From Evansella sp. LMS18 (GTDB taxonomy: Bacteria; Bacillota; Bacilli; Bacillales; Salisediminibacteriaceae): DNA of 64,000 nucleotides. The stretch covers positions 186,001 to 250,000 of the forward strand of contig NZ_CP093301.1 in assembly GCF_024362785.1 (NCBI RefSeq), written 5' to 3'. Made by a program: the position numbers and the translations under genes. The notes under the pieces are model-generated. The model did no database searches, had not been told where the DNA came from, and saw nothing but the letters and a program-made list of their open reading frames with translations. How positions within the stretch are numbered: the stretch's first letter is position 1; each line of letters starts with the position of its first letter. Positions 4,653 through 58,653 of this stretch are shown here, in pieces.

Positions 4653-5534
4653 TTATTCAATATTTTGAACCTGTTCACGGATTTTTTCCAGTTCTGATTT
4701 TATTTCCACTACATGCTTGCTTATAGTGACATCATTAGACTTGGAACCAATGGTGTTCGTTTCACGGTTCAGTTCCTGAACGATAAAATCAAGCTTTCTT
4801 CCAACAACTTTTTCGCTGCTGATAATATCATTAAATTGCTTCAGATGGCTCTGTATCCTTGTAAGCTCTTCCTCTATATCACTTTTATCAGCGTAAACTG
4901 CAACCTCTGTAAGAACTCGTGACTCGTCAATCTCCAGGGCTGATCCGGTAAAATCACGAACCTTTTTCGTCAATCTCTCCAGATAATTTTTCTGGATAGC
5001 AGGCGCGAACTCTTTAAGCTCTTCCGCCTTATCAGAGAGACGCCCTATCCGTTTATGTACATCCTCATAAAGCTCCAGGCCTTCCTTCTTTCTCATCTCC
5101 ACGAGCTGAAGGACAGCATCCTCTGCCGCAGAAACAACAAGGCTCTTCAATCCTTCATCCACTTCATCCGATTCCTGGATTTCCACCACAGCGTCATTTG
5201 CCAGCATACTGTTCAGCGGGAAATCAGCGTTGCTGCCGAACTTCTCTTTCATTTCGGAGAATACAGAGTGATACTGGCTGAGCAGTTCCCAGTTAACAGC
5301 AAGCGTCCGGTTAACAATTCCTTCTCCGCTGATGTTTATAAATACATCCACTTTCCCTCGTTTTACGAAGCGGCTGATCGTTTTTTTCAACTGATCTTCG
5401 AGAAAGAAAAACTGCCGGGGCATTCTAATATTAATTTCGCAAAAACGGTGATTTACAGCCTTCATTTCCACTGTAACCTGACAATCGGCATTTTCCTTCA
5501 GGGAACGCCCGTATCCTGTCATACTCGTTATCAT
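4653..5534 (-). CDS. yloC: YicC/YloC family endoribonuclease
   Basis: YicC-type proteins are recently described endoribonucleases linked to sRNA and mRNA decay. The product begins MITSMTGYGR, the family signature, and ends with the conserved HVVEIKSELEKIREQVQNIE, including the EIK..EKIREQVQN motif. Long charged helices fill the middle. I place the start at the ATG encoding MITSMTGYGR (5534) because the signature begins there and GGATGTG lies just upstream; an in-frame ATG five codons earlier (5549) is the alternative. It is divergent from rqcH and upstream of remA. Confidence 0.9.
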   Translation of the reverse strand: MITSMTGYGRSLKENADCQVTVEMKAVNHRFCEINIRMPRQFFFLEDQLKKTISRFVKRGKVDVFINISGEGIVNRTLAVNWELLSQYHSVFSEMKEKFGSNADFPLNSMLANDAVVEIQESDEVDEGLKSLVVSAAEDAVLQLVEMRKKEGLELYEDVHKRIGRLSDKAEELKEFAPAIQKNYLERLTKKVRDFTGSALEIDESRVLTEVAVYADKSDIEEELTRIQSHLKQFNDIISSEKVVGRKLDFIVQELNRETNTIGSKSNDVTISKHVVEIKSELEKIREQVQNIE

Positions 5535-5856
5535 TTCTATCACATCCACATTACTATTTTATACGTTTTTCTGCTTTACAACAAGGGAAACAATAAGATT
5601 CGCCTAATAAAAGTGGATTTTTAAACTTTTTTCCAATACCTTCAAAGGGCTCTTTATGGATATAATTTACATATTATCTGACCAAAAAGTATTGCGCAAC
5701 ACATAACGAAAGATCTCATACTTACTTCATTTTTTGCTGGACAGGAAGGAGAAAAGGCATCTTCTATTATTGTAATAAGAATAGCTTTGCTATAATAAGG
5801 CTTGTATTATAAACATGTAAAAAGTTTAACCGCTTTTTTAAACTGGAGGTGCTTTA
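5535..5856. promoter_or_regulatory. Divergent promoter region between yicC and rqcH
   Basis: This AT-rich interval of about 320 bp separates the divergent yicC and rqcH genes and has no ORF. For rqcH, a TATAAT at 5791-5796 with a weak TTGTAA (5770-5775, only 15 bp spacing) is a possible promoter. No clear yicC promoter was identified. B. subtilis has a P-type ATPase gene (yloB) in this neighbourhood; none is present here. Confidence 0.4.
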
Positions 5857-7581
5857 ATGTCTTTTGATGGCATTGTCACACGGGCGGTTACAGAAGAGCT
5901 GCAGCAGCTCGTTTCCGGCCGGATCGTAAAAATACATCAGCCATATAAAACAGAACTTGTAATAACAGTAAGAGCAATGGGAAGAAACAGGCATATTTAC
6001 CTGTCTGCCAACCCAACATTTGCAAGGTTTCATATAACAGAAGAAAAATATGAAAATCCGAAAGAACCTCCAATGTTCTGCATGCTCCTGAGGAAACATC
6101 TTGAAGGAAGCATTCTGGAAAACATCGAACAAAAAGGACTTGAACGGATTGTCACCTTTTCATTCAAAGGCCGCAATGAGCTGGGTGATGTTTCTTATAA
6201 AAAACTGGTAATCGAATTAATGGGACGGCACAGCAATATTTTATTTGTGAATACGGAAGACAATATGATTATAGACAGTATAAAACATATTCCCCCTTCC
6301 CTTTCAACTTACAGGACTATCCTGCCTGGCCAGCAGTATAAAGAGCCTCCCCACCAGGATAAACTGAACCCGCTGGAAATTTCAGAAGACGAATTAAGAA
6401 GCAAATTAAATTTCTATCAGGGAAAAATGGACAAACAGTTAATCGACACGTTCAGCGGCCTTTCCCCGCAAATCATTCGGGAAATCCTTGCAAAAGCGCG
6501 GTTTTCCAACCAGGAGACATTGCCGCCAGCCTTCACGGAAGTACTGGAACCTGTTAAAAATAACGAGTATGTTCCCCATATGATTATGGACGATAATTCC
6601 GAAGCTTTCTCAGTTATTGAATTGAGCCATAAAAATGGGGAACGGAAATATTTTGAATCTGTCCATAAAATGCTCGACCGTTATTTTTACGGAAAAGCTG
6701 AAAGAGACCGTGTTAAACAGCAGGCAAATGACCTGGAGAAATTTCTGCGCAATGAATATAACAAGAACAACAAAAAAATCAAAAAGCTTAACAAGACACT
6801 TTCCGATGCTGATAAAGCACAGAAATACCAGCGTTACGGGGAGCTGTTAACCGCCCATATGCATCTTGTTAAAGAAGGGGATAAAGAGGTTGAGGTGACT
6901 GATTATTATGACCCTGACCAGAAGCAGGTGAATATACCTTTAGATCCGTATAAAACCCCTTCGGATAACGCACAGCAGTTCTTTAAAAAATACCATAAAC
7001 TGAAGAATTCCGTCGCAGTAGTGGAAGAACAGATTGAGAAGGCAAAAGAAGAGATGGCATATCTCGACCAGCTTATTCAGCAAGTGGAAACCGCCTCGCC
7101 TAAAGATATTGAAGGCATTCGCGAGGAGCTCGCGGAAGAAGGCTATATTAAAAAACGCATATCGAAAAAACAGAAGAAAAAGAATGATAAACCAACTCTC
7201 GAACATTATGTTTCCTCTGAAGGAATTGACATTTACGTGGGAAAAAACAATAAACAAAACGAGTATCTGACCAACCGGCTCGCAAGGCAAAATGACACCT
7301 GGCTCCATACGAAGGATATACCAGGCTCCCATGTTGTCATCCGCAGCCTGGAGTTTGGTGAAGAAACACTGAAGGAAGCAGCAAACTTAGCCGCATTTTT
7401 CAGCAAGGGCCGCCAGTCCGGCCAGGTGCCTGTTGATTACACATTGATTCGCCACGTGAAAAAACCAAGCGGCGCCAAGCCAGGTTATGTGACTTACGAC
7501 AACCAGACAACACTTTACGTCACCCCTGACGAAGACCTTGTTTTGAAGCTTAAAAATCGGAAGGCTGTACAGAATAACTAG
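5857..7581 (+). CDS. rqcH: Ribosome-associated quality control factor RqcH (NFACT family)
   Basis: RqcH binds stalled 50S-peptidyl-tRNA complexes and recruits alanyl-tRNA to add C-terminal poly-alanine degradation tails. The 574-residue protein has an NFACT-N domain starting MSFDGIVTRAVTEEL, the PPMFCMLLRKHLEG segment (about 71-84), a helical and coiled-coil middle (about 280-430), and an NFACT-R domain near 450-560 with NDTWLHTKDIPGSH and KPSGAKPGYVTY. At residues 96-97 it has Glu-Arg, where I recall B. subtilis RqcH having the functional Asp-Arg pair. It starts behind ACTGGAGGTG and ends at a strong terminator. Older names are FbpA and YloA. Of all genes here, only this and ylbP are on the plus strand. 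Confidence 0.95.
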   Translation: MSFDGIVTRAVTEELQQLVSGRIVKIHQPYKTELVITVRAMGRNRHIYLSANPTFARFHITEEKYENPKEPPMFCMLLRKHLEGSILENIEQKGLERIVTFSFKGRNELGDVSYKKLVIELMGRHSNILFVNTEDNMIIDSIKHIPPSLSTYRTILPGQQYKEPPHQDKLNPLEISEDELRSKLNFYQGKMDKQLIDTFSGLSPQIIREILAKARFSNQETLPPAFTEVLEPVKNNEYVPHMIMDDNSEAFSVIELSHKNGERKYFESVHKMLDRYFYGKAERDRVKQQANDLEKFLRNEYNKNNKKIKKLNKTLSDADKAQKYQRYGELLTAHMHLVKEGDKEVEVTDYYDPDQKQVNIPLDPYKTPSDNAQQFFKKYHKLKNSVAVVEEQIEKAKEEMAYLDQLIQQVETASPKDIEGIREELAEEGYIKKRISKKQKKKNDKPTLEHYVSSEGIDIYVGKNNKQNEYLTNRLARQNDTWLHTKDIPGSHVVIRSLEFGEETLKEAANLAAFFSKGRQSGQVPVDYTLIRHVKKPSGAKPGYVTYDNQTTLYVTPDEDLVLKLKNRKAVQNN

Positions 7582-45954: not shown

Positions 45955-46162
45955 CATTACCTCCATCAAAGGTTGTTTTTAACCAAGGTGTTTATTTCAT
46001 TCTTTTATAAAAATCCAATACGGCTGAGTTGGAATGTTATAAGATTCATCTCTTTGAAGCTAATACGTCATGACTCATAATAAAATTTCATGTCTCTTAC
46101 TATTATAGCGCAAAAATCAGTGTCCTGATGACTATAATCTGAAGGTTTTTTCAATATAACCA

Positions 46163-46193
46163 AACAAAAAAGCAACTGCTGAAAAGCAGAAGC
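46163..46193 (-). terminator. Terminator downstream of spoVE
   Basis: The minus-strand hairpin GCTTCTGCT..AGCAGTTGC is followed by TTTTTTG, 17 bp after the spoVE stop. It separates the mraY-murD-spoVE unit from murB. Confidence 0.75.
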
Positions 46194-46209
46194 AAAAAGG
46201 ACCACATTC

Positions 46210-47307
46210 TTATCTCATATGGCGGCTTATATTCAGCAGAACACCTATTGAAGTAAGCATCAAAGTAAGAGAAGAACCTCCATAACTCAGAAGTGGAAGC
46301 GTAATGCCAGTAACCGGCATCAGTCCGATTACTACTCCAATGTTTATCATTACCTGAATAGCGATCATACCAATAATCCCCACTGCAAGAAAAGTTCCGT
46401 ACATATCAGGGGCATACAAGGCAATGCGCAGGCCTCTCCAAAGCAGAACCGCAAAGCAGGCAAGCACAAAAGCGCCTCCAAGAAAGCCCAGTTCTTCCGC
46501 CAGAATGGCAAAAATAAAATCCGTCTGAGGTTCCGGCAGATAAAAATATTTTTGCCTGCTGGCACCAAGCCCCAGTCCTAACAACCCGCCTGGACCTATA
46601 GCGTATAAGGACTGGATAATCTGAAAACCACTCCCTAAAGGGTCCTGCCATGGATCGAGAAAGGAAACGATCCTCTGAAGCCGGTACGGGGCAGAAAGAA
46701 TAAGCCCGGTTAAGCCTGCCAGGCCAAGCAGTCCGAGAAAAACGAAATGCTTGATCCGGGCTCCTCCGGTAAATACCATAACCACCCCTGTAAGTACCAT
46801 GACCATTCCGGTTCCAAGGTCAGGCTGCAGCATAATAAGGGCAAATGCCACGATTACAAGCCCAAGTGTAGGGACCAGCCCATGCTTCACTGTAGTAATA
46901 TGTTTTTGTTTTTCTGATAAAAACTTCGCAAGATAAAAAATCATCGCCATCTTCATAAATTCAGATGGCTGGATAGAAAAAGCTCCGACTCCAAGCCAGC
47001 TTCTTGCTCCGCCCCTCACAAGCCCTACTCCAGGTATAAGCACGATAATAAGGAGCAGGAAACAGACAATGACGAGAGCCTTTGTCATTCTTCTCCATGT
47101 CCAGTAATCCACATTCATCATAAACAGCATAGCTGCCACACCAAGCACTGCAAAAAATAACTGCCGCTTTAAGAAGAAAAAGCTGTCGTTAAAATTATAT
47201 TCAGCCCAGACAGCACTTGCACTGTACACCATAATCAAACCTGCTGATAACAAACAGACTGTAGCTGCAATTAGTAAGATATCAGGTGCAGATTTTGTTT
47301 TAGGCAA
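46210..47307 (-). CDS. spoVE: SEDS peptidoglycan polymerase SpoVE (FtsW/RodA family)
   Basis: Polytopic lipid II polymerase used for spore cortex, or FtsW for division. The 365-residue protein has about ten membrane helices and SEDS motifs GGARSWLGVGAFSIQPSEFMK, MLQPDLGTGMV, EELGFLGG and GLMPVTGITLPLLSYGGSS. Position after murD fits spoVE. In B. subtilis spoVE is sigma-E driven; TCATGTT (47377-47383) and CATAAAGAT (47355-47363) upstream weakly resemble that promoter. FtsW cannot be excluded from sequence alone. Confidence 0.92.
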   Translation of the reverse strand: MPKTKSAPDILLIAATVCLLSAGLIMVYSASAVWAEYNFNDSFFFLKRQLFFAVLGVAAMLFMMNVDYWTWRRMTKALVIVCFLLLIIVLIPGVGLVRGGARSWLGVGAFSIQPSEFMKMAMIFYLAKFLSEKQKHITTVKHGLVPTLGLVIVAFALIMLQPDLGTGMVMVLTGVVMVFTGGARIKHFVFLGLLGLAGLTGLILSAPYRLQRIVSFLDPWQDPLGSGFQIIQSLYAIGPGGLLGLGLGASRQKYFYLPEPQTDFIFAILAEELGFLGGAFVLACFAVLLWRGLRIALYAPDMYGTFLAVGIIGMIAIQVMINIGVVIGLMPVTGITLPLLSYGGSSLTLMLTSIGVLLNISRHMR

Positions 47308-47385
47308 TAGAGAACACCTCGGTTTCCATTAAGTAAATACTTCTCTATTACCTATCTTTATGAATGGATGGGACAAACATGACAA

Positions 47386-48747
47386 CTACTGTATTAAGTT
47401 TTTCACAGCACCAACAAAGTGGTCTCCCCGCTCTTCAAAGGTCCTGAACTGATCCCAGGATGCGCACGCTGGAGAAAGAAGAATGATATCTCCTGGAGAG
47501 GACTGTGCGTAAGCTGCCGGCACTGCCTCAGAAAGCACCGAAGTTTTTTCAACTGCCGGCACACCTGCCTCTGCCGCTGCATCAGCTATCTTTGCGGCTG
47601 TCTCCCCATAAGTAATAACGGCTTTAACATTCTGTCTTAAGTACGGAACCAACCCGGTGAAAGGAACGCCTCTGTCAAGGCCTCCTGCAATCAAAACAAC
47701 CGATTTTCCTTCAAATGCTTTTAAAGAGGTTATTGCGGCAGGAACATTCGTTGCTTTTGAATTATTATAAAAGCTTCTTCCTTCGTACTCTGTCACAAAC
47801 TGGAGACGGTGCTCAACACCGCTGAACATTCGCAGAACATCCTTCATTCTGTCCTTCAAAGCACCTGATAAATAAGCTGCTGCTGCCGCTGCAAGGCCGT
47901 TTGCAATATTATGTTCCCCAGGAAGAGACATTTCCTCTGCTTTGATAAGTCTTTCGCCGAACACCTCAAGCCAGCCATCCCTGATACATGCCCCTTCTTC
48001 TAAAACAGTCTTCGTTGAGAAAGGAACTTTTCTGGCAGGGGTGCGTCCAGCGAGCCCGCTCACCGTCTCATCGTCAGCATTGTAAATAAAGAAATCATTT
48101 TCTTTCTGATTGGCAAAAACTTTTGCTTTTGCCTCTATGTATTCACTCATAGAACCATGATAATCGAGATGGGCCTCCACAATGTTCAGGAGAATGGAGA
48201 TCTTTGGACGAAATTCCTTCGTCCCAAGCAGCTGAAAACTTGAAAGCTCTGTTACCATTATATTTTCACTGGTAGCATTCTGTGCCACCTCACAGGCAAC
48301 CTCGCCTATATTTCCTGCTATTAACGGCTCTCGTTTTCCGCCTTTAAGCATCTCAAATAAATAAGTGGTAGTTGTTGTCTTACCGTTGGAACCAGTGATA
48401 CCGATAATTTCCGCCTCACTCACCTCATAAGCAAGTTCCATTTCTGTTATAACAGGTATCCCTTTCTGTTCCGCGGCTGACACGAGAGGATTATCGTAAC
48501 GTATACCCGGGTTTTTCACCACATAGTCAAGCTCATCATGAACAAGCTCCACCGGATGGGAACCGCATACTACGTTGGCCCCCTTTTCCTTCAGCTGCTG
48601 TGCTTCTTTATTTTTTTCAAAAGGCTCCCGGTCGTTCACTGTAACTTCTGCGCCCAGATCCAGCAGGAGTTCAGCAGCAGCCGTACCGCTTTTGGCAAGG
48701 CCGAGCACAAGAATTCTTTTACCCTGGAATTTTGTTGTCTTTTTCAT
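47386..48747 (-). CDS. murD: UDP-N-acetylmuramoylalanine-D-glutamate ligase
   Basis: Adds D-Glu to UDP-MurNAc-L-Ala. The 453-residue product begins [21 protein letters not shown], with a Rossmann domain, ATPase P-loop IIGITGSNGKTTTT, NIVEAHLDYHGSMSEY and the C-terminal RLQFV..YNNSKATN. The ATG at 48745-48747 overlaps the mraY stop (TAATG). The P-loop here is normal, in contrast with the MurF-like neighbour. Confidence 0.96.
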   Translation of the reverse strand: MKKTTKFQGKRILVLGLAKSGTAAAELLLDLGAEVTVNDREPFEKNKEAQQLKEKGANVVCGSHPVELVHDELDYVVKNPGIRYDNPLVSAAEQKGIPVITEMELAYEVSEAEIIGITGSNGKTTTTTYLFEMLKGGKREPLIAGNIGEVACEVAQNATSENIMVTELSSFQLLGTKEFRPKISILLNIVEAHLDYHGSMSEYIEAKAKVFANQKENDFFIYNADDETVSGLAGRTPARKVPFSTKTVLEEGACIRDGWLEVFGERLIKAEEMSLPGEHNIANGLAAAAAAYLSGALKDRMKDVLRMFSGVEHRLQFVTEYEGRSFYNNSKATNVPAAITSLKAFEGKSVVLIAGGLDRGVPFTGLVPYLRQNVKAVITYGETAAKIADAAAEAGVPAVEKTSVLSEAVPAAYAQSSPGDIILLSPACASWDQFRTFEERGDHFVGAVKNLIQ

Positions 48748-49733
48748 TAGATGAACACCTCTAAGTAAACTAAATAAACGCCGATAACAGCGAGCAGGAA
48801 TCCTACAAGCCAGAATGTAACAACAACACGCCATTCACTCCAGCCGGACAGCTCGTAATGGTGATGAAGCGGACTCATTTTAAATACCCGCTTACCTGTT
48901 GTTTTAAACGCTATAACCTGAATGATAACAGAAAGAGTTTCGATGACGAAAACTCCGCCAATTACGATAAGCAGCAGTTCCATTTTTGTAAGAATGGCAA
49001 TCATGGCAAGTGCTCCGCCAAGGGCAAGAGACCCTGTATCACCCATAAAAACTTTTGCCGGATGCGCATTAAAAACTAAAAATCCTAAGACCGCACCGAC
49101 TACCGCCACGGAAAAAATAGAGACGGTGTATAAAGACAGAGAATAAGCGATGATAGCAAAGGCACCAAAGGCAATAGCCGATGTCCCTGCCACAAGGCCG
49201 TCCAGCCCGTCTGTGAGGTTAACCGCATTGGATGCCCCTACAAGCATGACGATAATTAAAGGAAGATAAAGCCAGCCTATATCAAGGGAAAATCCTGTTC
49301 CAGGTACAATGATTTCTGTAGAGAGATCTGTCTGAAATAGCAGAACTGCATAAACGATTGCAGCAATCGCTACCTGGCCAAGGAACTTTTGTTTCGAAGT
49401 AAGGCCGAGGTTTCTTTTCTTAACTACTTTGATAAAATCATCAAGAAATCCTAATAGACCGAAACCAAAAGTAACAAAGATAAGAAGAAGAATTTCCACA
49501 TCCACAGAATGGAAAAATCCTGCGATGACCAAAGCGGAAATAATAAGTGAAAACATGATCATAATACCGCCCATCGTTGGTGTTCCGCTTTTCTTCTGGT
49601 GGGACTTCGGGCCTTCATCCCGGATACTCTGGCCGAATTTCAGCCTTCTTAAAAAAGGTATAAAAATTGGTGAAACTGCTACAGTGATGATAAAAGATAA
49701 TATTAGTGTATATAATAAGCCTTGTTCCAGCAT
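48747..49733 (-). CDS. mraY: Phospho-N-acetylmuramoyl-pentapeptide transferase MraY
   Basis: Transfers phospho-MurNAc-pentapeptide to undecaprenyl phosphate, making lipid I. The 328-residue product has about ten membrane helices, the substrate motif [16 protein letters not shown], catalytic Asp motifs FLDDFIKV and [10 protein letters not shown], and HHHYEL near the C-terminus. The ATG at 49733 follows AAAGGAG. It is separated from the MurF-like gene by 159 bp. Confidence 0.96.
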
Positions 49734-49892
49734 AACAGGAACTCCTTTCTGTACTGCGCCCGGTTGAAATACCCGGTATTCTGTGATTACTGCCTCCGGA
49801 AACAACAAACTTGAAGCCTTTTTGCAGGCTCCACTGTTCATTCGAAGGCTTTGTTAAAGCTCTGCTGATGAGTGCGTTTCAAGGTACTCGCG

Positions 49893-50555
49893 CTATTTGG
49901 AAAAAGAAAAGCTTTCCAGCTTCTCTGCAGCTGCTTCTGCAGGCAGGCCCAAATGCACGCAAACGGCAACAGCGTATGCTGCATATTTAATATGCTGTAG
50001 TTCCGAGCTGTTTATTTGAAACCGAAGCCTGATGCCTTCAATCGAAAATTCACTGTTGTCAGGACCTGTCTCTTCCACCGAATGTATTTTAAAGAGACAG
50101 CCATCTGAAAAACCCGCTTTGACAGCGTCTGCCTTCCATTCCCGGTCAAGAAGAGGATCGTCCCCGTCTAAAATAAGACTTGCTGAAGCCTTCATCAAGT
50201 TTTCAGCCAGGGAAATGATACCCTTTGTTTGATTTTTATCACCGGCGCCCTCGACCCCTGTAATAACATTGAAGCCCGGCTGAAGAACCTGGAAAAGCTC
50301 AGCTGCTGTTTCCTCGTCCTGGGGATCTGTTTCAAAGATATAAACATCTGTGCCTTCCGGGAGCTGAAGAAGGGACAGAAAAGCAGCAGCAGGATCAGAC
50401 ACACTGCCTGCTGTCGCTTCTGTTTTAAAATGATTCTCAAGCATCGCTTCAATCAGCTTAATAACAGTGGTTCTTTTCCCACTCCCGGTTACAGCGATTA
50501 CCACAGGCTCCAGGTCGATAAGATAATCTCTTGCCATATCTCTGAAACCCTTCAT
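49893..50555 (-). CDS. Truncated MurF-like Mur-ligase protein, probably catalytically inactive
   Basis: The 220-residue protein corresponds only to the central ATPase domain of Mur ligases, in the position of murF. Real MurF is about 450 residues with N- and C-terminal domains; both are absent and there is no room for the C-domain before mraY. The P-loop, expected as TGSNGKTTT, reads TGSGKRTTV: Asn is lost and Arg is inserted before Thr. The NNEIG-type switch and the metal His of NVGEAH are gone (ITGVEGAGDK), although LILDGDDPLL still resembles the NADDP motif. The ATG overlaps the murE stop (TAATG), so it is coupled to murE. No frameshift was found. It may be a pseudo-enzyme or a decaying gene; functional murF is presumably elsewhere, next to ddl as in B. 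subtilis. Confidence 0.75.
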   Translation of the reverse strand: MKGFRDMARDYLIDLEPVVIAVTGSGKRTTVIKLIEAMLENHFKTEATAGSVSDPAAAFLSLLQLPEGTDVYIFETDPQDEETAAELFQVLQPGFNVITGVEGAGDKNQTKGIISLAENLMKASASLILDGDDPLLDREWKADAVKAGFSDGCLFKIHSVEETGPDNSEFSIEGIRLRFQINSSELQHIKYAAYAVAVCVHLGLPAEAAAEKLESFSFSK

Positions 50556-52024
50556 TACTGTCTCGCCTCCGCTGCCGCTTCCCTTGCAGTTTCTCTGTCA
50601 TCAAAATGGTAATTCACTTTACCTATTGTCTGGTATGTTTCATGGCCTTTCCCGGCAATCAGGATAATCTCATCTTTTTCTGCTCTTCGGACTGCCTCAT
50701 AAATAGCTTCCCTGCGATTTTCAATTACTGTATAAGAAGAACCGCTCATACCCGCTTTCATATGTTCAATGATCACAGCAGGGTCCTCTGAACGAGGATT
50801 ATCGGAAGTTAAGTACACAAAGTCAGCCAGCTGTTCTGCTATTTTTGCCATTTCAGGCCGTTTTGTTTTATCTCTGTCTCCACCGCAGCCAACGACAACC
50901 GAAACCTTCCCTTTCGCAAATTCCCTTATGGTCTCAAGAACGTTCTGAAGGCTGTCTGGTGTATGTGCATAGTCGACTATAACATGGAAGTCTTCTTCGA
51001 GGGCAACTCTTTCAAACCTTCCTGCCACACCCTCTACGGACGATAAACTTCCGGCAATAGTCTTTATGCCGACACCGGTTACATACGCAGCCGCTGCTGC
51101 TGCGAGGGCATTGTATACAGAGAACCGCCCAGTCATTTTTAAGGTGATTTCCTCACGTTCTTCTCCGATAGTCAGATCAAAAGCTGTCCCCCGCTCTGTT
51201 ATCCTTATGTTTTCTGCTTTCATATCTGCATCATTATCAATGCCGTATGTTAAAAGGGGCGCAGCAGTCATGGTCTGAATCAAACCGGCCGTTTTATCAT
51301 CTGCATTAATTACTGCTCTAGGCTGCCTTCCTTCTTCATAGCCGTTTCCAAGCTGTGCAAAAAGCAAGCCTTTAGCTCTGGCATAATTGTCCATTGTTTC
51401 GTGGAAATCAAGATGATCCTGCGACAAGTTTGTAAAAACAGCCACATCAAATTGGGCACCATGTGTCCTCCCAAGCTCCAGGGCATGGGAGGAAACCTCC
51501 ATAGCCACTGCCTCCACACCTTCATCAACCATACTGGCAAAACTTTTTTGTAAAGTGAGAGATTCAGGTGTTGTGTTCGCAGTGGTAACTTCCTTACCTG
51601 CATACCTCATATACATCGTGCCTATGATTCCCGTATTTATTTTGTGATCTGTAAGTATCTTTTCAATTAAGTGGGTAACCGTAGTTTTCCCATTTGTTCC
51701 TGTCACGCCGATCAGATGGAGCTTTGTTGTAGGATAACCGTAGAATGCTGCCGATAAAAGAGCCATTGCCCTTTTTGAGTCTTTCACCTTAATTACCGGA
51801 ACACTGACAGAAACATCCTCTTCGGCTATTATCGCAGCTGCGCCTTTTTCGGCAGCCTGCTGTGCATAATCGTGTCCATCCACCGTATAGCCTTTAACAC
51901 AAAAGAAAAGCCCCCCTTCAGTAACTTCCCGGGAGTCCATATATAATTCCTTAATGAGGGGGTCCTCATTGCTCTTAGTCTCATAGGAAGGGAGTCTTCC
52001 TAATAGTTTGCTCAACTGCATCAT
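50555..52024 (-). CDS. murE: UDP-N-acetylmuramoyl-tripeptide synthetase (meso-DAP adding) MurE
   Basis: Adds meso-diaminopimelate to UDP-MurNAc-L-Ala-D-Glu. The 489-residue protein has an intact P-loop GVTGTNGKTTV, TTPESLTLQKSFASM, the carbamylated-Lys region ARAKGLLF and the DNPRSEDP motif characteristic of DAP-specific MurE. The wall is therefore inferred to be DAP-type. The stop codon overlaps the MurF-like ATG. Confidence 0.97.
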   Translation of the reverse strand: MMQLSKLLGRLPSYETKSNEDPLIKELYMDSREVTEGGLFFCVKGYTVDGHDYAQQAAEKGAAAIIAEEDVSVSVPVIKVKDSKRAMALLSAAFYGYPTTKLHLIGVTGTNGKTTVTHLIEKILTDHKINTGIIGTMYMRYAGKEVTTANTTPESLTLQKSFASMVDEGVEAVAMEVSSHALELGRTHGAQFDVAVFTNLSQDHLDFHETMDNYARAKGLLFAQLGNGYEEGRQPRAVINADDKTAGLIQTMTAAPLLTYGIDNDADMKAENIRITERGTAFDLTIGEEREEITLKMTGRFSVYNALAAAAAAYVTGVGIKTIAGSLSSVEGVAGRFERVALEEDFHVIVDYAHTPDSLQNVLETIREFAKGKVSVVVGCGGDRDKTKRPEMAKIAEQLADFVYLTSDNPRSEDPAVIIEHMKAGMSGSSYTVIENRREAIYEAVRRAEKDEIILIAGKGHETYQTIGKVNYHFDDRETAREAAAEARQ

Positions 52025-52103
52025 TTTATCCCTCTTTCCTGCCTGTTCACATGCTGCCCCTGTTTTTTTGAAAATGGAGCATTTTTAACTCATAACTTTC
52101 ATT

Positions 52104-54041
52104 TTACTGTTCCTCTTCTTTTTTGTCACCCATATATATTCTGATTACTGAACCGGCTTTTATCCTGACTCCCGGCTCCGGGGACTGAACAAGTACTTCC
52201 TTGCCTTCTCCCGACACATCAAGCTTCAGCTCATAGTAAGCCTCATGGATATCCTTCATCGTTCTTCCGATAAGATCCGGTACTTCCACAAGAGGTTCGT
52301 CATTCCACATTCTCTCTTTCTCTATTTGTTCCGCCCTTCTTTCAACACCAAGGGCACGAAGGCCGTCTTCCATAATATTCCCTACAATAGGCGCAGCAAC
52401 AGTTCCACCAAATTGCACTGTGTTTTTCGGGTTGTCCACAGCAACGTAGACAACAATCTGTGGATCATCTGCAGGAGCGAATCCGATAAAGGAAACGATG
52501 TGGTTGTTTTCCAGGTATCTTCCGCCCTGCGCTTTCTGGGCAGTACCTGTCTTCCCGCCAACACGATAGCCATCTACATAAGCTCCTCTTCCTGTTCCTT
52601 TAGCTACAACATGTTCAAGGGCTCTCCTGATTTCGGCAGATGTTTCCTCCGAGATCACCTGTTTTTTCAGAACCGGCGAGGTATTTGCAATCACTTCTTC
52701 CGTGGCCGGATTAACCCACTCTTTCGCAAGATAAGGCTGATACAGATTACCGCCATTTACCGCTGCTGCCACTGCAGCAACCTGCTGTATCGGAGTTACC
52801 GACACCCCCTGGCCGAACGCGGTGGTTGCAAGCTCCAGCGGCCCCACATTTTCCAGGTCAAACAGTATCCCTTTCCCTTCCCCTTGCAAATCTATGCCTG
52901 TTTTGCTTCCAAATCCAAAATCGTTAATATATTTAAATAAAGTATCTTTGCCAAGACGTTCACCTAAAACAACAAAACCCGGGTTACATGAATTCTGGAC
53001 AACTTCAAGAAAGGTTTGTGAACCATGGCCTCCTTTTTTCCAGCAGCGGAGCCGGTGGCCTGAAACTTCTATATGCCCAGGATCGTGGAAATTATCTTTA
53101 TCAAGATCTACTTTCCCTTCTTCGAGGGCGGCAGCAAGCGTGATGATCTTGAAGGTGGATCCTGGCTCATACTGGCTCCAGACCGGCTTATTCTGATTGT
53201 AAATTTCAGGAGGCACTTCTTTAAATCGTTCCGGATCGTAATCGGGGCGGGAAGACATTCCGAGAATTTCTCCTGTATTCGGGTCCATTGCAATTGCCAT
53301 CGCTCCGTCAGGATTGTATGTAGCTTCTGCAATATCCAGTTCCCTTTCTATTATCGTCTGAATCCTCGTATCTATTGTTAATTTTAAGTGTTGGCCGTCC
53401 ACCGGCTCTGTATACTCGTCGGCTAAATTCGGCATTCTTCTCCCCTTAGCATCTGAGTAGAAAGAGACGAACCCTGGCTGGCCAGAAAGCTGTTCATCAT
53501 AATAGAGTTCAAGTCCTGTCAGCCCCTGATTATCTATTCCCGCAAAGCCCAGCACATGGGATAAGTACTTCCCAAATGGATAGTGGCGTTTATTATCTTC
53601 CGCAATATAAACACCGTCCAGCTTTAAATCCCTGACTTTCTGCGCCAGTTCATTGCTCATTTTTCTGCCCTCAGGATTCATTCGCACGATCGAAGCTTTT
53701 TTTGTAACTAATTCATACGCCTTTTTTTCATCCATCGATAATACTTGGGCAAGTTCCCCTGCCACTTCTGCCGGCTCTTTTACCTGGCGGGGCACTACCA
53801 ATACAGATGGCGCACTTATATTAGTAGCAAGAGGTATTCCGTTCCGGTCCAGAATCTCCCCTCTTTTCGCTTCGAATGGGATATTACGGCTCCAGGAGTC
53901 CTCCGCCCGGGATGAGATATCATCTCCTATTACAAGTTGTACGTAAGCGAGTCTTATTATCATTACCATAAAAACCACAAGACCGGCACACAGGGCAAAA
54001 ATAAGTCTTTTTCTAACTGTTACGTTGGATACACGTTTCAT
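52104..54041 (-). CDS. spoVD: Sporulation penicillin-binding protein SpoVD
   Basis: Class B PBP, a transpeptidase for spore cortex, working with SpoVE. The 645-residue product has a signal-anchor helix (LIFALCAGLVVFMVMIIRLAY), a dimerisation domain, transpeptidase motifs STFK, SCN and KTGTAQK, and one C-terminal PASTA domain (VEVPDLIGRTMKDIHE). The single PASTA and GRGAYVDGYRVGGKTG fit SpoVD. The ATG at 54041 follows CGGGGGGTTC. A hairpin before the gene separates it from pbpB. Confidence 0.95.
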   Translation of the reverse strand: MKRVSNVTVRKRLIFALCAGLVVFMVMIIRLAYVQLVIGDDISSRAEDSWSRNIPFEAKRGEILDRNGIPLATNISAPSVLVVPRQVKEPAEVAGELAQVLSMDEKKAYELVTKKASIVRMNPEGRKMSNELAQKVRDLKLDGVYIAEDNKRHYPFGKYLSHVLGFAGIDNQGLTGLELYYDEQLSGQPGFVSFYSDAKGRRMPNLADEYTEPVDGQHLKLTIDTRIQTIIERELDIAEATYNPDGAMAIAMDPNTGEILGMSSRPDYDPERFKEVPPEIYNQNKPVWSQYEPGSTFKIITLAAALEEGKVDLDKDNFHDPGHIEVSGHRLRCWKKGGHGSQTFLEVVQNSCNPGFVVLGERLGKDTLFKYINDFGFGSKTGIDLQGEGKGILFDLENVGPLELATTAFGQGVSVTPIQQVAAVAAAVNGGNLYQPYLAKEWVNPATEEVIANTSPVLKKQVISEETSAEIRRALEHVVAKGTGRGAYVDGYRVGGKTGTAQKAQGGRYLENNHIVSFIGFAPADDPQIVVYVAVDNPKNTVQFGGTVAAPIVGNIMEDGLRALGVERRAEQIEKERMWNDEPLVEVPDLIGRTMKDIHEAYYELKLDVSGEGKEVLVQSPEPGVRIKAGSVIRIYMGDKKEEEQ

Positions 54042-54155
54042 ACCGAACCCCCCGTTATGGGCAAAATTTAGGTTCCTCTCCTGCATGGAGAAAACCACTG
54101 CGGCAGTTTTTACAGGGATATGAGATGTAAAAACACTCCGGCTTGGTTCAGACAT

Positions 54156-54192
54156 ATGAAAACAAAGGACAGGATAGAACCTGTCCTTTGTT
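54156..54192 (-). terminator. Hairpin between pbpB and spoVD
   Basis: A perfect 13-bp stem AACAAAGGACAGG/CCTGTCCTTTGTT with loop TTCTAT is followed by TTCAT. The T-run is short, so termination may be partial. spoVD in B. subtilis has its own sporulation promoter. Confidence 0.7.
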
Positions 54193-54225
54193 ATTTACAT
54201 GCATATACGTAATTTAAAAGCTTCA

Positions 54226-56457
54226 CTAATCCATGAAAAACTCTTCTTCCTCGTCGTTTCCATCTTCCTCAGCTTCTTCATTTTCTTCCACTGATTCTTC
54301 CAGGTCATCCTCAGCTTCTTCTTCCCGTTCTCCAGGGACAGAAAGAGCGGCCTTAATCCGGTCGGCACCTGCAAGGCTGGTTCCAGGGTCCGGTGTCTGG
54401 GAATAAACAAAACCATTCCCGGATGTTTCAGCAGTAATCCCGGTAAGCTCCTGGAAAGCAAATAAATATCTCTGTGGCCAGTCATTCATGTCAGGCATCA
54501 GGATTTCTTCGCTATCTGTCATTAACAGCACTTTTTCACCGTTAAGAATTCCCATGCCCGGGTTAGGAAACTGCCCTGTAATCTCAGTACCCTCTCCGAT
54601 AAGGAATGGTTTCAGGCCAGCATCTTTAAGGTGCTCTGCAGCCTCTTCTGCAGCTGCGCCTGTGAAGTCTTCAAGTATATTTGCCTCATCTTCGTTATTT
54701 CCGATTGTTTCTGTAGGAGCGATATTTAAATACTGAAGACTCTGGTTCATTACCGATTTGAATATCATTGACACAGGAAGGTTTCCAGGTTCATCAAGAT
54801 CCAGCTTCGGCCGGTCAACAGCCACGTACACAATGACTTCCGGGTCCTCTGCAGGCGCCATGCCCAGGAAGGAATAAATAAAATTACCGTGCCCTGTCAT
54901 GTATCCTGGTCCGTCCTCACGGATAATTTCAGCCGTTCCGGTTTTTCCCGCAACATTGAATCCTTCTATTGCATAGGGCCTGCCTGTACCGTCTTCATCT
55001 GAAACAACTGTTTCCATAAGCTCCAGCACCTGGCTGGCAGTCTCTTCAGAAACCGGATTGCCAGCAGCTTCTGGTTCTCCTTCCACAATCATCTCTCCGC
55101 TGTCGCTATTCACTATTTTGTCGATAATGTAAGGCTTCATCATCGTTCCATTATTCGCAATCGCTGTAGCTGCCTGCACCTGCTGAATCGGGGTTACTGC
55201 ACTACCCTGGCCAAAAGAAGTCGTGGCAGCGTCACTGCGCCATTGCCTTGCAATCTGGCTGTTTGCTTCATTAGGCAGTTCAATCCCGGTAGGTGAGTTA
55301 AATCCAAACTTGTCTATATACTCATATAATTTATCAGGACCAAGCTTATCCAGGGCAAGGATGGACATAGCCACGTTCGATGAACGCCGGAAGCCCTCAT
55401 CATAACTGATTTCTCCCCACCCTCCTCTATAGTGGTCCCTGATCGAATGGTCGCCAAGTTCATAGGAACCTGACTTGAATAAATCGTCCCCGTTATATAC
55501 ACCTTCTTCAATGGCCGCAGCAACAGTGAATATCTTCATCGTAGAGCCAGGTTCGTACCTGGAGGAAATATTATAGTTGGTGTAATTCTCGATGGATTCA
55601 TACTGGTTCGGATTGAAGCTGGGGCGGTTGGACATGCCAAGTATCTCGCCGGTCTTCGCATTGGCAACCACAGTCATAACCCGTTCCGGGCTGAACTCTT
55701 CTTCCACCTGGTTCATTGTCTGTTCAATTGCCATCTGGATTCGCGTGTCCAGCGTCAAATAAACATCGTTCCCATTTTCAGGGGGATCAATAATTTCATC
55801 AGCGTTTGGAAGCCTGCGGTTCCTGCCGTCCTTCTGATAGGAAATGCTGCCCTCTTCTTCCTGCAAATAGTCATTCAGGCTGCTTTCCAGTCCCATTCTC
55901 GCCTCGGACATATCACGTTCTGTATAGCCAAGAATGTGGGAAGCAAACATTTGTTTAGGATAGTATCTCCTTGGATCAGTCCTCAGCTGGATTCCTGACA
56001 GCTCAAGCGCTTCGATTTCTTCTTTCGTTTCATAACTTAAAAACTTCGCCTTTGGACCAAGCTCCACCTGCACCCGGCCGTTTTCAATCCCCGAAGTGAG
56101 GTAGCCTTCAATAACAGACTGTTCGATGTCGAGTACAGTGCTCAGTTTTCTTGCGGTCTCCGCAGGATCCTCCACCCGGTCGCTATATCTATCATCCAGA
56201 ATAGCAACTACTGAGTACGAGGTAACTTCTTCTGCCAGGGCATCCCCATTCCTGTCAAAAATGGTGCCTCGCTTCCCCTCCAGAACTCTCGTCTGGGACC
56301 ATCTTTGTTCAATAATCTCCTGCAAATCATGCCCCTGGACTTCCTTGGCAGCCTGGATATAAATAAATCTTGTAAAAAGAAGCGCTGTTCCGAGTATGAC
56401 TACCACAAACACGAACAGCGCTCTTTTGGTCACTAAAGGGCTCTTTCTCTCTTCCAT
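54226..56457 (-). CDS. pbpB: Division penicillin-binding protein PBP2B
   Basis: Class B transpeptidase essential for septum formation. The 743-residue protein has a membrane anchor (ALFVFVVVILGTALLFTRF), the active-site STMK, SSN and KTGTAEI motifs, and two C-terminal PASTA repeats (ANILEDFTGAAAEEAAEHLK and MPDMNDWPQRYLFAFQE). After the PASTA repeats comes a strongly acidic tail of about 35 residues (EREEEAEDDLEE onwards) that I do not recall from B. subtilis PBP2B. The ATG at 56457 is chosen for the GGGGG upstream. Confidence 0.95.
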   Translation of the reverse strand: MEERKSPLVTKRALFVFVVVILGTALLFTRFIYIQAAKEVQGHDLQEIIEQRWSQTRVLEGKRGTIFDRNGDALAEEVTSYSVVAILDDRYSDRVEDPAETARKLSTVLDIEQSVIEGYLTSGIENGRVQVELGPKAKFLSYETKEEIEALELSGIQLRTDPRRYYPKQMFASHILGYTERDMSEARMGLESSLNDYLQEEEGSISYQKDGRNRRLPNADEIIDPPENGNDVYLTLDTRIQMAIEQTMNQVEEEFSPERVMTVVANAKTGEILGMSNRPSFNPNQYESIENYTNYNISSRYEPGSTMKIFTVAAAIEEGVYNGDDLFKSGSYELGDHSIRDHYRGGWGEISYDEGFRRSSNVAMSILALDKLGPDKLYEYIDKFGFNSPTGIELPNEANSQIARQWRSDAATTSFGQGSAVTPIQQVQAATAIANNGTMMKPYIIDKIVNSDSGEMIVEGEPEAAGNPVSEETASQVLELMETVVSDEDGTGRPYAIEGFNVAGKTGTAEIIREDGPGYMTGHGNFIYSFLGMAPAEDPEVIVYVAVDRPKLDLDEPGNLPVSMIFKSVMNQSLQYLNIAPTETIGNNEDEANILEDFTGAAAEEAAEHLKDAGLKPFLIGEGTEITGQFPNPGMGILNGEKVLLMTDSEEILMPDMNDWPQRYLFAFQELTGITAETSGNGFVYSQTPDPGTSLAGADRIKAALSVPGEREEEAEDDLEESVEENEEAEEDGNDEEEEFFMD

Positions 56458-56492
56458 ATACCCTGCCCCCATTCAAACTCCTGCTGGTAAAA

Positions 56493-56858
56493 TTATTCAT
56501 TCTGGTGGGTAAATCTTACGTTCTCCTCATTCAGAACCATTCCCATGTCTTTAGCTTCGGATAAAATACGCTCCGGATCCGACAGTTCCATCACTTGCAG
56601 GCTCAGCGCTTCATTGACTCCTGTCTGCTGGCTGATTTCCACCTCAGTCTGCTGGATTTGGTGGTTCGTCATATAAATGGATGCATAATTAGATAAAATT
56701 AAACACAGGACAAACACAAAAGCCGCGGAAGCCACTATGTAAATCAGCTTCTCTCCCTTTGTCACTCTCCCTTTATAAACCCTTTTTGTTACAGTTCTTC
56801 TCTCTCGCTGCGGCTGTACAGAAGTGTATGGAGCCTGTTTTTGTACAAGTGGACTCAT
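56493..56858 (-). CDS. ftsL: Cell division protein FtsL
   Basis: Bitopic division protein of 121 residues: basic cytoplasmic head (RERRTVTKRVYKGRVTKGEK), one membrane helix (LIYIVASAAFVFVLCLILSN, about 37-57) and an external leucine-zipper-like coiled coil (IQQTEVEISQQTGVNEALSL, then DPERILSEAKDMGM). The order rsmH-ftsL-pbpB is conserved. Confidence 0.93.
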   Translation of the reverse strand: MSPLVQKQAPYTSVQPQRERRTVTKRVYKGRVTKGEKLIYIVASAAFVFVLCLILSNYASIYMTNHQIQQTEVEISQQTGVNEALSLQVMELSDPERILSEAKDMGMVLNEENVRFTHQNE

Positions 56859-56873
56859 ATATCATACCCCCGG

Positions 56874-57812
56874 TTATTTTTTCTCAGCAATCCTCAGCTT
56901 TGCGGAAGATGCCCGATTATTATTTTCTAATTCTCTTTCATCGGCAAGTATAGGTTTTCTGTTTATTAATGTCAGTTCCGGTTCAAACGACTCAGGAATT
57001 ACAGGTAAATCTTTCGGCAGTTCCTCCGGAGTGCTTCTCCGTTTAAATACCTGCTTGCATATTCTGTCTTCTAAAGAATGAAAGGTTATTACCGCTATCC
57101 TCCCTCCTGAGCTTGTCCTGTCAATTGCATCATTTAAAGCTTTTTCAAAGACATTCAATTCATCATTTACAGCGATTCGGATCGCCTGGAATGTTCTTTT
57201 AGCCGGGTGTCCGCCTTTCCGTCTGGCTGGTGCCGGAATAGCTTCTTTAATAACCTCAACCAGCTCAAAAGTGGTTTTTACCGGTTCAGTTTCCCGTCTC
57301 TTTTCAATTTTTCTTGCAATCTGTTTCGCGAACCGTTCTTCCCCGTACCTGGCAATAATCCGTACGAGATCCTCGAAGGCCCATTCATTTACTACCTCGT
57401 ATGCAGACAAGGACTGCCCCCGGTCCATCCGCATATCTAAAGGAGCATCAAACCGGTAGCTGAAGCCTCGTTCCGGCTCATCAAACTGAGGGGACGAAAC
57501 TCCAAGATCGAAGACGAAGCCATCCACTTTTTCAATTTGAAGTTCGTCGAGCTTCTCATTAAGATATTCAAAATTACTATGGACAAAGATAACTTTGTCT
57601 TTATACGGAGCGAGGCGTTCCTTCGCAAAACTCAGCGCTTTTTCATCCTGGTCGAAAGCGATCAGCCTGCCATTATCACCAAGCTCAGAGAGAATCCTTT
57701 CACTGTGTCCCCCTCCCCCGAGGGTACAGTCTACATAAACCCCGCCAGGATCTATATTCAGGCCCTTCACTGTCTCTTCTTTAAGAACCGTTTCATGTTC
57801 AAACAAATACAT
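56874..57812 (-). CDS. rsmH: 16S rRNA m4C1402 methyltransferase RsmH (MraW)
   Basis: N4-methylates C1402 in 16S rRNA. The 312-residue protein begins [20 protein letters not shown], with the SAM motif [37 protein letters not shown] and the C-terminal LKIAEK-like LRIAEKK. The ATG at 57812 follows GGAGGAA; a longer open frame runs into mraZ and is not used. Confidence 0.96.
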
Positions 57813-57831
57813 TTCCTCCTGTCTGTGAGTA

Positions 57832-58263
57832 TTACAGTTCAAAATCCACAATACCTTCTGCAATCTCTCCGAAGGATTCCTCAGATTCCGCAAAATATTC
57901 TTCCCAAATAGATTTACTCCAGATTTCCACCCGATTGGAAACCCCGATTACAACACATTCTTTTTCAAGACTGGCATATGTACGCAAAGTTGGCGCTATA
58001 TTTACTCTTCCTTGTTTATCAAGCCCGCATTCAGCTGCTCCGGAAAAGAAAAAACGCGTAAACGCTCTGGCATCTTTTTTAGTAAAGGGGAGCGTTTTAA
58101 GCTTTTGCTCTAATTGTTTCCATTCCTGTTCCGGATAAACAAACAGGCATTTGTCCATTCCCCTTGTAACGACGAAGGTGGTTCCAAGTTCTTCGCGAAA
58201 TTTTGCAGGGATAATCATCCTGCCTTTCTCATCAATATTATGATGATACTCGCCCATGAACAT
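57832..58263 (-). CDS. mraZ: Transcriptional regulator MraZ
   Basis: AbrB-fold DNA-binding protein regulating the dcw operon, itself the first gene. The 143-residue product begins [24 protein letters not shown] and has two SpoVT/AbrB-like repeats, the second around [19 protein letters not shown]. Strong AGGAGGTGG precedes the ATG. Possible operators lie just upstream (58281-58316). Confidence 0.96.
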
Positions 58264-58280
58264 GAAACTCCACCTCCTAT

Positions 58281-58316
58281 CCCCACTTTATAACACTAAT
58301 TTACCACATCCCCCCA
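58281..58316 (-). promoter_or_regulatory. Candidate MraZ operator repeats
   Basis: On the minus strand TGGGG (58312-58316), a 5-bp spacer and TGGTA (58302-58306) follow the TGGGN-N5 spacing known for MraZ, and another TGGGG is at 58281-58285. They lie 18-53 bp upstream of mraZ, which would allow autoregulation. The match is short and GC-rich. Confidence 0.4.
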
Positions 58317-58653
58317 CTATAAACCACTTGGAAATGCAAAAAAGTTAAAAAAAGAAAAGAAAACCCTGCAGACAGCAGAATTTCCTTTCGTATACTTGCA
58401 ATTTTAAGTTAATTGTTAAGTAAATGGAATGAGCTCCTCCATATTGAAAAAAACGGCTGATCGAGTGGGTGCGGACCTACTAGATGTAAAAAAAGATGCT
58501 CGATGGAGGGGAGGGGTGGAGCCTTCCAACCGGAAAAAGGGGCTTGATGTAAGGGGGGCGCGCCGTTACTAGCATAAAATCGGGTGATTCCAAGGGTATA
58601 ACAGGCCATTAGCGGAACCTATAACTTGCTTAAAAGTAAGGAAATTAATGAAA

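What the first reader, a model, noticed from the sequence alone, without database searches (positions are those of the whole stretch)
49893..50555. Stand-alone MurF-like central domain with a broken P-loop, coupled to murE
The gene sits exactly where murF sits in many Firmicute dcw clusters, but encodes only 220 residues, all central-domain. The P-loop reads TGSGKRTTV instead of TGSNGKTTT, and the metal-binding NVGEAH segment has become GVEGAGDK. Yet the reading frame is intact, starts on a TAATG overlap with murE, and keeps fold-level residues. A decaying gene would be expected to show stops or frameshifts. This suggests a retained pseudo-ligase, perhaps a scaffold or regulator of MurE/MraY.
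Basis: partly seen in the sequence, partly recalled or inferred. Interest (0 to 1): 0.7.

Follow-up and report, generated by a model that had tools for sequence, protein, structure and literature searches.

The report
Retained inactive MurF remnant beside murE
A cell-wall enzyme gene has lost the parts it would need to do its chemistry, yet this bacterium and its relatives keep an intact, selected version of it in the same place, which suggests the protein has a second, non-enzymatic job.

Summary
The 220-residue ORF (49893-50555, minus), overlapping murE by TAATG, is only the MurF central domain; nucleotide, metal and ligase motifs are gone. It is not a decaying pseudogene: against its one close relative dN/dS is 0.158 (bootstrap 0.091-0.252), below all 1500 neutral simulations.

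The murE-[x]-mraY slot holds an open frame in all 35 held genomes of the GTDB family. Three are ordinary MurF, their genomes' only full-scoring MurF. The other 32 are degenerate, with different domains lost, and each genome has another MurF or MurF-like candidate. Of 80 named Bacillaceae loci, 13 keep only the N-terminal domain in the slot. Degenerate retained forms lie in three lineages of a quick tree. Where murG of the same operon was displaced (9 genomes), no remnant was detected.

Best reading: MurF catalysis moved elsewhere, and the operon copy stayed as a non-catalytic protein, probably for contacts within the MurE/MraY/MurG assembly. Lost motifs and selection are shown; the partner is inferred. 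No domain is common to all retained forms, a real difficulty. My paper searches listed no description.

The parts
49893..50555 (-). x: MurF central-domain-only ORF without the catalytic motifs (220 aa)
50463..50489 (-). degenerate P-loop TGSGKRTTV (residues 23-31)
50235..50258 (-). GVEGAGDK in place of the NIGESH segment (residues 100-107)
50127..50141 (-). EWKAD (residues 139-143): W140 and D143 invariant in 11 of 11 g1/g4 slot proteins, variable in ordinary MurFs
50566..50570 (-). GGAGG, Shine-Dalgarno-like, 10 nt before the x start, inside the end of murE
50555..52024 (-). murE, normal (NCBIfam 637 bits), overlapping x by TAATG
48747..49724 (-). mraY, taking the MLEQ start seen in relatives; 168 nt after the x stop (ORF listing gives an earlier in-frame ATG at 49841)

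Best explanation
x descends from the murF that ordinarily sits between murE and mraY. MurF catalysis was taken over by another gene: a ddl-linked MurF in this genome, and in 12 relatives probably a ~530-aa MurF-like protein (five of the 12 read: hydrophobic N-terminus, intact ligase motifs). The operon copy was then kept as a non-catalytic protein under purifying selection. Shown here: ancestry, loss of catalytic motifs, selection, retention. Inferred: that it is inactive and made; that it works through protein-protein contacts, most likely in the assembly that hands UDP-MurNAc-peptide from MurE to MraY/MurG; and that active MurF already had this second role. In the window's lineage only the central domain remains.
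For: Open frame in the slot in 35 of 35 held family genomes, 32 of them degenerate. dN/dS 0.158 (0.091-0.252) for the window protein, 0.04-0.26 in two other genera; minimum of 1500 neutral simulations 0.34. Constraint has switched: 18 of 205 columns are invariant in 11 g1/g4 proteins, only 2 of them (P93, F170) among the 61 invariant in 55 ordinary MurFs; the g2/g5/g6/g7 class has its own consensus motifs, DEGFQ in place of GDMLELG, and GEKAFW. Ordinary slot murF is the only over-cut-off MurF in 22 of 22 genomes checked; the 63 others checked (32 degenerate, 13 N-only, 18 without a slot ORF) all have another MurF or MurF-like candidate, 48 over the cut-off and 15 under it. Control: displaced murG left no detected remnant in 9 of 9 genomes. 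Passages of PMC6420597 report MurE-MurF binding to MurG and a two-hybrid MurF-MraY contact. Precedent: angiosperm MurE homologue PAP11 is a component of plastid RNA polymerase (passages of PMC12681378); PDB 9epc chain Q, which I take to be PAP11, aligns at Z 21.5.
Against: No single domain is common to all retained forms: N-only in some Bacillaceae, centre-only here, N plus C around a shrunken centre in g2/g5. That fits one shared interface poorly. x evolves fast: mean pairwise identity in g1/g4 is 33.5% against 70.0% for (partial) MurE and 83.8% for MraY. 28 of 80 named loci have no such ORF, so it is not generally required. The window's dN/dS rests on one pair. The nine murG-displaced genomes are related, so they are fewer than nine independent events. 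No interaction or expression was measured or modelled.
Confidence: 0.5

Rival explanations
1. A ligand-binding regulator: the remnant still binds a nucleotide or UDP-MurNAc-peptide and tunes MurE, MraY or the ddl-linked MurF according to precursor level.
For: Complete Mur central-domain fold predicted (pLDDT 94.1). The g2/g5/g6/g7 class keeps the D and H of the N-domain DGH motif in 20 of 20.
Against: The window protein lacks the N-domain. P-loops differ between lineages; 1 of 32 (G006) keeps a TGxxGKT match. N-only forms lack DTR and DGH (alignment, by eye).
Confidence: 0.17
2. An operon spacer: a translated, foldable ORF is needed between murE and mraY for expression balance, and selection acts only against misfolding.
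For: TAATG coupling to murE; the 13 N-only frames end 2-17 nt before the MraY match. Different domains survive in different lineages.
Against: In the window 168 nt separate x from the MLEQ start of mraY. Invariant polar residues E118, D130, D132, D143, K190, H201 seem more than foldability needs. 28 of 80 named loci have no such ORF.
Confidence: 0.15
3. A relic still decaying after MurF moved: slow erosion with no present function.
For: Fast divergence, lost domains, loss of the ORF in several lineages.
Against: dN/dS 0.158 with an upper bound of 0.252; neutral simulations 0.34 or more. 32 of 32 degenerate copies have open frames. murG was removed without a detected remnant.
Confidence: 0.08
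4. A still-catalytic ligase or ATPase with another substrate.
For: E75 of the EMG motif and parts of the loop are kept; G006 has TGSFGKT.
Against: C-terminal domain absent, GESH His and the invariant Lys of the central domain absent, P-loop Gly-Lys replaced by Lys-Arg.
Confidence: 0.04

Closest known systems
MurF (UDP-MurNAc-tripeptide:D-Ala-D-Ala ligase), dcw-encoded
   Same: Slot between murE and mraY; central-domain fold (VIA Z 27.1 to PaMurF 4cvm; Foldseek top hit 8f5d, MurE-MurF complex); sequence homology (TIGR01143 1.1e-17).
   Different: N- and C-terminal domains absent; P-loop, GESH His and invariant Lys lost; 64.1 bits against a cut-off of 288.6.
MurE-MurF fusion and Mur-enzyme complexes (Bordetella, Caulobacter, Thermotoga)
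   Same: MurF associated with MurE, MurG and MraY (PMC6420597, passages seen).
   Different: There MurF is an enzyme; here the partner would be inactive and reduced, and no contact was tested.
PAP11, the MurE homologue in plastid RNA polymerase
   Same: A Mur ligase homologue serving as a component of a complex (PMC12681378, passages seen).
   Different: MurE-derived, in plants, a different complex; no relation beyond the fold is claimed.
MurT of MurT/GatD
   Same: Mur-ligase central-domain fold (VIA Z 23.1 to 9sq9).
   Different: MurT works in an amidotransferase complex (recalled); sequence model and gene position place x with MurF.

Membership tests
MurF ligase (TIGR01143) | full-length match over the curated cut-off (288.6 bits) | tested here: not met
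   64.1 bits, positions 61-284 of 418
MurF ligase (TIGR01143) | P-loop TGSxGKT | tested here: not met
   TGSGKRT in the window; TGxxGKT in 1 of 32 degenerate slot proteins
MurF ligase (TIGR01143) | GESH His and invariant Lys of the central domain | tested here: not met
   alignment columns 259 (gap) and 273 (I114)
MurF ligase (TIGR01143) | C-terminal domain with DAYNASP and GDMLELG | tested here: not met
   absent
MurF ligase (TIGR01143) | ligase activity | not testable with these tools
   needs purified protein
descent from the dcw murF (homology, not function) | same slot and MurF-specific similarity | tested here: met
   in VIA the top 8 rows are MurF, but two other MurFs (2am1 Z 22.6, 3zl8 Z 21.9) lie among MurC, MurE and MurT
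pseudogene | broken frame or dN/dS near 1 | tested here: not met
non-catalytic pseudoenzyme | enzyme fold, catalytic residues lost, retained under selection | tested here: met
   lack of activity is inferred from sequence
non-catalytic pseudoenzyme | a demonstrated non-catalytic function | not testable with these tools
   no interaction data

The most novel reading that the evidence does not exclude
MurF in Bacillaceae carried an ancestral second, structural role in the MurE-MraY-MurG assembly. When catalysis moved to another MurF, several lineages independently reduced the operon copy to an inactive scaffold, each keeping a different part, so comparing the remnants would map the scaffold surfaces.
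Probability: 0.3. Interest if true: 0.8.

Novelty: new variant of a known kind. Interest (0 to 1): 0.6.

Why it matters
Whether the cytoplasmic Mur enzymes work as one physical complex is an open question, and essential enzymes cannot easily be deleted to test it. A natural MurF without catalytic motifs, kept under selection beside a separate active-looking MurF, would separate structure from catalysis. Deleting it in a harmless relative would test a non-catalytic role directly. These proteins are also easily missed: Pfam recognised none of six relatives submitted and NCBIfam none of two N-only ones out of three.

Tried and rejected
Pseudogene: rejected. Stand-alone N-domain elsewhere in the genome: one N-domain query in G000 and G004 found the ddl-linked MurF, plus one weak hit each (E 0.55 and 0.35) not followed up. 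RNA element in 46000-58500: no Rfam match at gathering score. Promoter/terminator scan of 49500-50800: 3 promoter-like sites (1.6 expected), 3 terminator-like sites (1.2 expected), one of them between x and mraY on the coding strand (49833-49812); not pursued. Single-sequence structure prediction was poor (pLDDT 43.9), so the fold rests on an alignment that contains 33 ordinary MurFs, which steers the model. Paper searches showed no such protein in their listings (only listings and abstract starts seen): murF with pseudoenzyme, dcw cluster/Bacillaceae, paralog, scaffold/MurG, gene order, catalytically inactive Mur ligase, truncated/Evansella, transmembrane; one search was swamped by muscle MuRF1. 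The 8f5d paper was not found under its title phrase. One shared interface in a single domain: not supported. dN/dS was computed for 13 slot pairs; three gave no value (dS saturated: G031-G033, G017-G019, G020-G021) and two had dS above 2 (G011-G013, G025-G026) and were not relied on.

Full report
OBSERVATION. The ORF at 49893-50555 (minus, 220 aa) starts with ATG inside the TAATG overlap with murE and has GGAGG 10 nt upstream. Against NCBIfam's murF it scores 64.1 bits (1.1e-17) over positions 61-284 of 418, far below the 288.6 cut-off. Pfam gives 23.1 bits against a cut-off of 24. An AlphaFold2 model with 36 aligned sequences (window, L097, L098 and 33 ordinary MurFs) reached pLDDT 94.1 and pTM 0.91; without an alignment it failed (pLDDT 43.9). 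The model matches MurF central domains best: Foldseek top hit 8f5d; in VIA the top eight rows are MurF, led by 4cvm (Z 27.1, rmsd 2.2, 220 aligned), though two other MurFs fall among MurC, MurE and MurT.

ANOTHER MURF EXISTS. The genome (4.90 Mb, one contig) has a full-length murF at C1:2671741-2673012, 467 bits, next to ddl.

THE SLOT IN RELATIVES. I compared all 35 genomes that the tool holds for the GTDB family (8 genera). The slot between murE and mraY holds an open frame in 35 of 35; start codons were not checked one by one. Three are ordinary MurF (G017, G019, G034; 397-427 bits) and their genomes have no other over-cut-off MurF. The other 32 are degenerate. Nine g1/g4 genomes and G018 have N plus central domains without the C domain. 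G000 (window) and G004 have the centre only. Eleven g6/g7 genomes have full length with GDY- or GDE-type loops and DEGFQ- or DDGFQ-type sequence (DDGFR in one) instead of GDMLELG. Nine g2/g5 genomes have N and C domains around a shrunken centre. A TGxxGKT motif survives in 1 of 32 (G006), whose EMG Glu, GESH and C domain are gone. Of 61 columns invariant in 55 ordinary MurFs, the 32 keep 12 to 23.

NAMED ORGANISMS. An MraY scan returned 80 named loci. Their slots hold ordinary murF in 35, a short ORF (open frames of 149-176 codons) in 13, and family-type degenerate forms in 4; the remaining 28 have no ORF over 150 aa and no match to a MurF profile better than E 0.23. All 13 short ORFs match the MurF N-terminal domain (profile of 32 ordinary MurFs, E 1.4e-11 to 2.7e-23; hhalign probability 99.7%). 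Of three submitted, NCBIfam missed two and Pfam all. Through identical slot proteins (by eye) or contig length, G027 is Salipaludibacillus neizhouensis, G010 Alkalicoccus daliensis, and G005 the MAG 'Bacillus sp. S6C1421'. That the window's genus is Evansella is recall, not a result.

WHO DOES THE CATALYSIS. I examined 50 of the 76 non-family named loci. The 19 ordinary-slot genomes each have exactly one over-cut-off murF, the slot one (I compared the printed coordinates). The 31 others (13 N-only, 18 without a slot ORF) have one elsewhere in 28 (two in G080), and in 3 only sub-cut-off candidates (G037, G071, G081). In the family, 20 of 32 degenerate-slot genomes have an over-cut-off murF elsewhere. 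The remaining 12 have none, but each has a ~530-aa MurF-like protein (528-540 aa, 236-248 bits); in G003 a 375-aa protein scores as high. I read five of the twelve: hydrophobic N-terminus (judged by eye) plus intact MurF-type centre and C domain; the one whose neighbours I checked (G020) lies next to ddl. That it is the acting MurF there is inference.

HOW OFTEN. On an MraY+MurE tree (111 rows, quick method, SH-aLRT only), degenerate retained forms lie in three lineages: a 31-row clade with the family's g1, g2, g4, g5, g6 and g7; G018 within g3 beside ordinary G017 and G019; and N-only forms within a 33-row Bacillaceae clade (13 N-only, 20 without). Starred branches separate the first clade, g3, and the rest, and ordinary MurFs occur in the last two; so if lost motifs are not regained, the loss happened three times or more. 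The branch of the 33-row clade itself has support 94, not starred, and two long rows were joined; a careful tree was not run.

SELECTION. Nei-Gojobori dN/dS for x between G000 and G004 is 0.158 (bootstrap 0.091-0.252; dS 0.395), against murE 0.100 and mraY 0.110 with overlapping intervals. In g6 pairs with usable dS it is 0.115-0.262, in g2 pairs 0.041-0.065, in ten pairs of N-only ORFs 0.196-0.474 with upper bootstrap limits up to 0.76. Neutral simulations at the window pair's divergence gave 0.34 or higher in 1500 of 1500; 9-20% of them had no stop. In 11 g1/g4 proteins, 18 of 205 full columns are invariant; 2 of the 18 coincide with active-MurF invariants. Most of the 18 are shared with the ordinary g3 MurF G017, so they are largely kept ancestral residues rather than new ones.

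A MATCHED CONTROL. In the window, murG is absent from its usual place between spoVE and murB; the only murG match lies at C1:2975607-2976650. Nine genomes with this state (window, G002, G003, G004, G007, G017, G018, G020, G021) have spoVE-murB gaps of 211-553 bp, no MurG match better than E 0.17 and no open frame over 75 codons there. G001 and G006 served as positive controls, with murG in place. So displaced dcw genes can vanish here; displaced murF did not within this family. The nine are related, so they are fewer than nine independent events. Outside the family the slot ORF is often missing (28 of 80).

MECHANISM. Shown: origin, loss of catalytic motifs, selection, retention. Inferred: inactivity, expression, and contacts with Mur-pathway partners. 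Support from print is indirect: passages of PMC6420597 on MurE-MurF binding MurG and a MurF-MraY two-hybrid signal, and passages of PMC12681378 on a MurE homologue as a component of plastid RNA polymerase. Against a simple scaffold: no domain is common to all retained forms. A regulator or a spacer role is not excluded.

VERDICT. A real, selected MurF derivative without catalytic motifs, and a wider family pattern; function unproven.

Noticed in passing
window 45970-46209: dcw murG is missing between spoVE and murB; the genome's only murG match is a distant, lower-scoring copy (257.8 bits). Eight more family genomes share this state without a detected remnant; G001 has both copies.
   Followed up: partly
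L090, L092, L093, L094, L096: A ~530-aa MurF-like protein with a hydrophobic N-terminal part and intact ligase motifs (five read) is present in all 12 of 35 family genomes that lack an over-cut-off murF; next to ddl in the one checked. Hits of similar length (530 and 543 aa, not read) are the best in G071 and G081.
   Followed up: partly
L103, L117, L118, L120, L124, L125, L136, L140, L148, L153, L155, L164, L168 (about 5465-5998): Stand-alone MurF N-terminal-domain ORFs of about 150 aa between murE and mraY; of three submitted Pfam found none and NCBIfam one weakly.
   Followed up: yes
window 49812-49833: A terminator-like stem-loop on the coding strand between x and mraY; only a consensus match (3 found in the region, 1.2 expected).
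   Followed up: no
L091 and L024 (375 and 374 aa): MurF-like proteins without an N-terminal domain; L091 lies beside a ddl-like gene.
   Followed up: no
L097 3373-4897: murE appears split in two frames in this MAG, perhaps a sequencing error.
   Followed up: no
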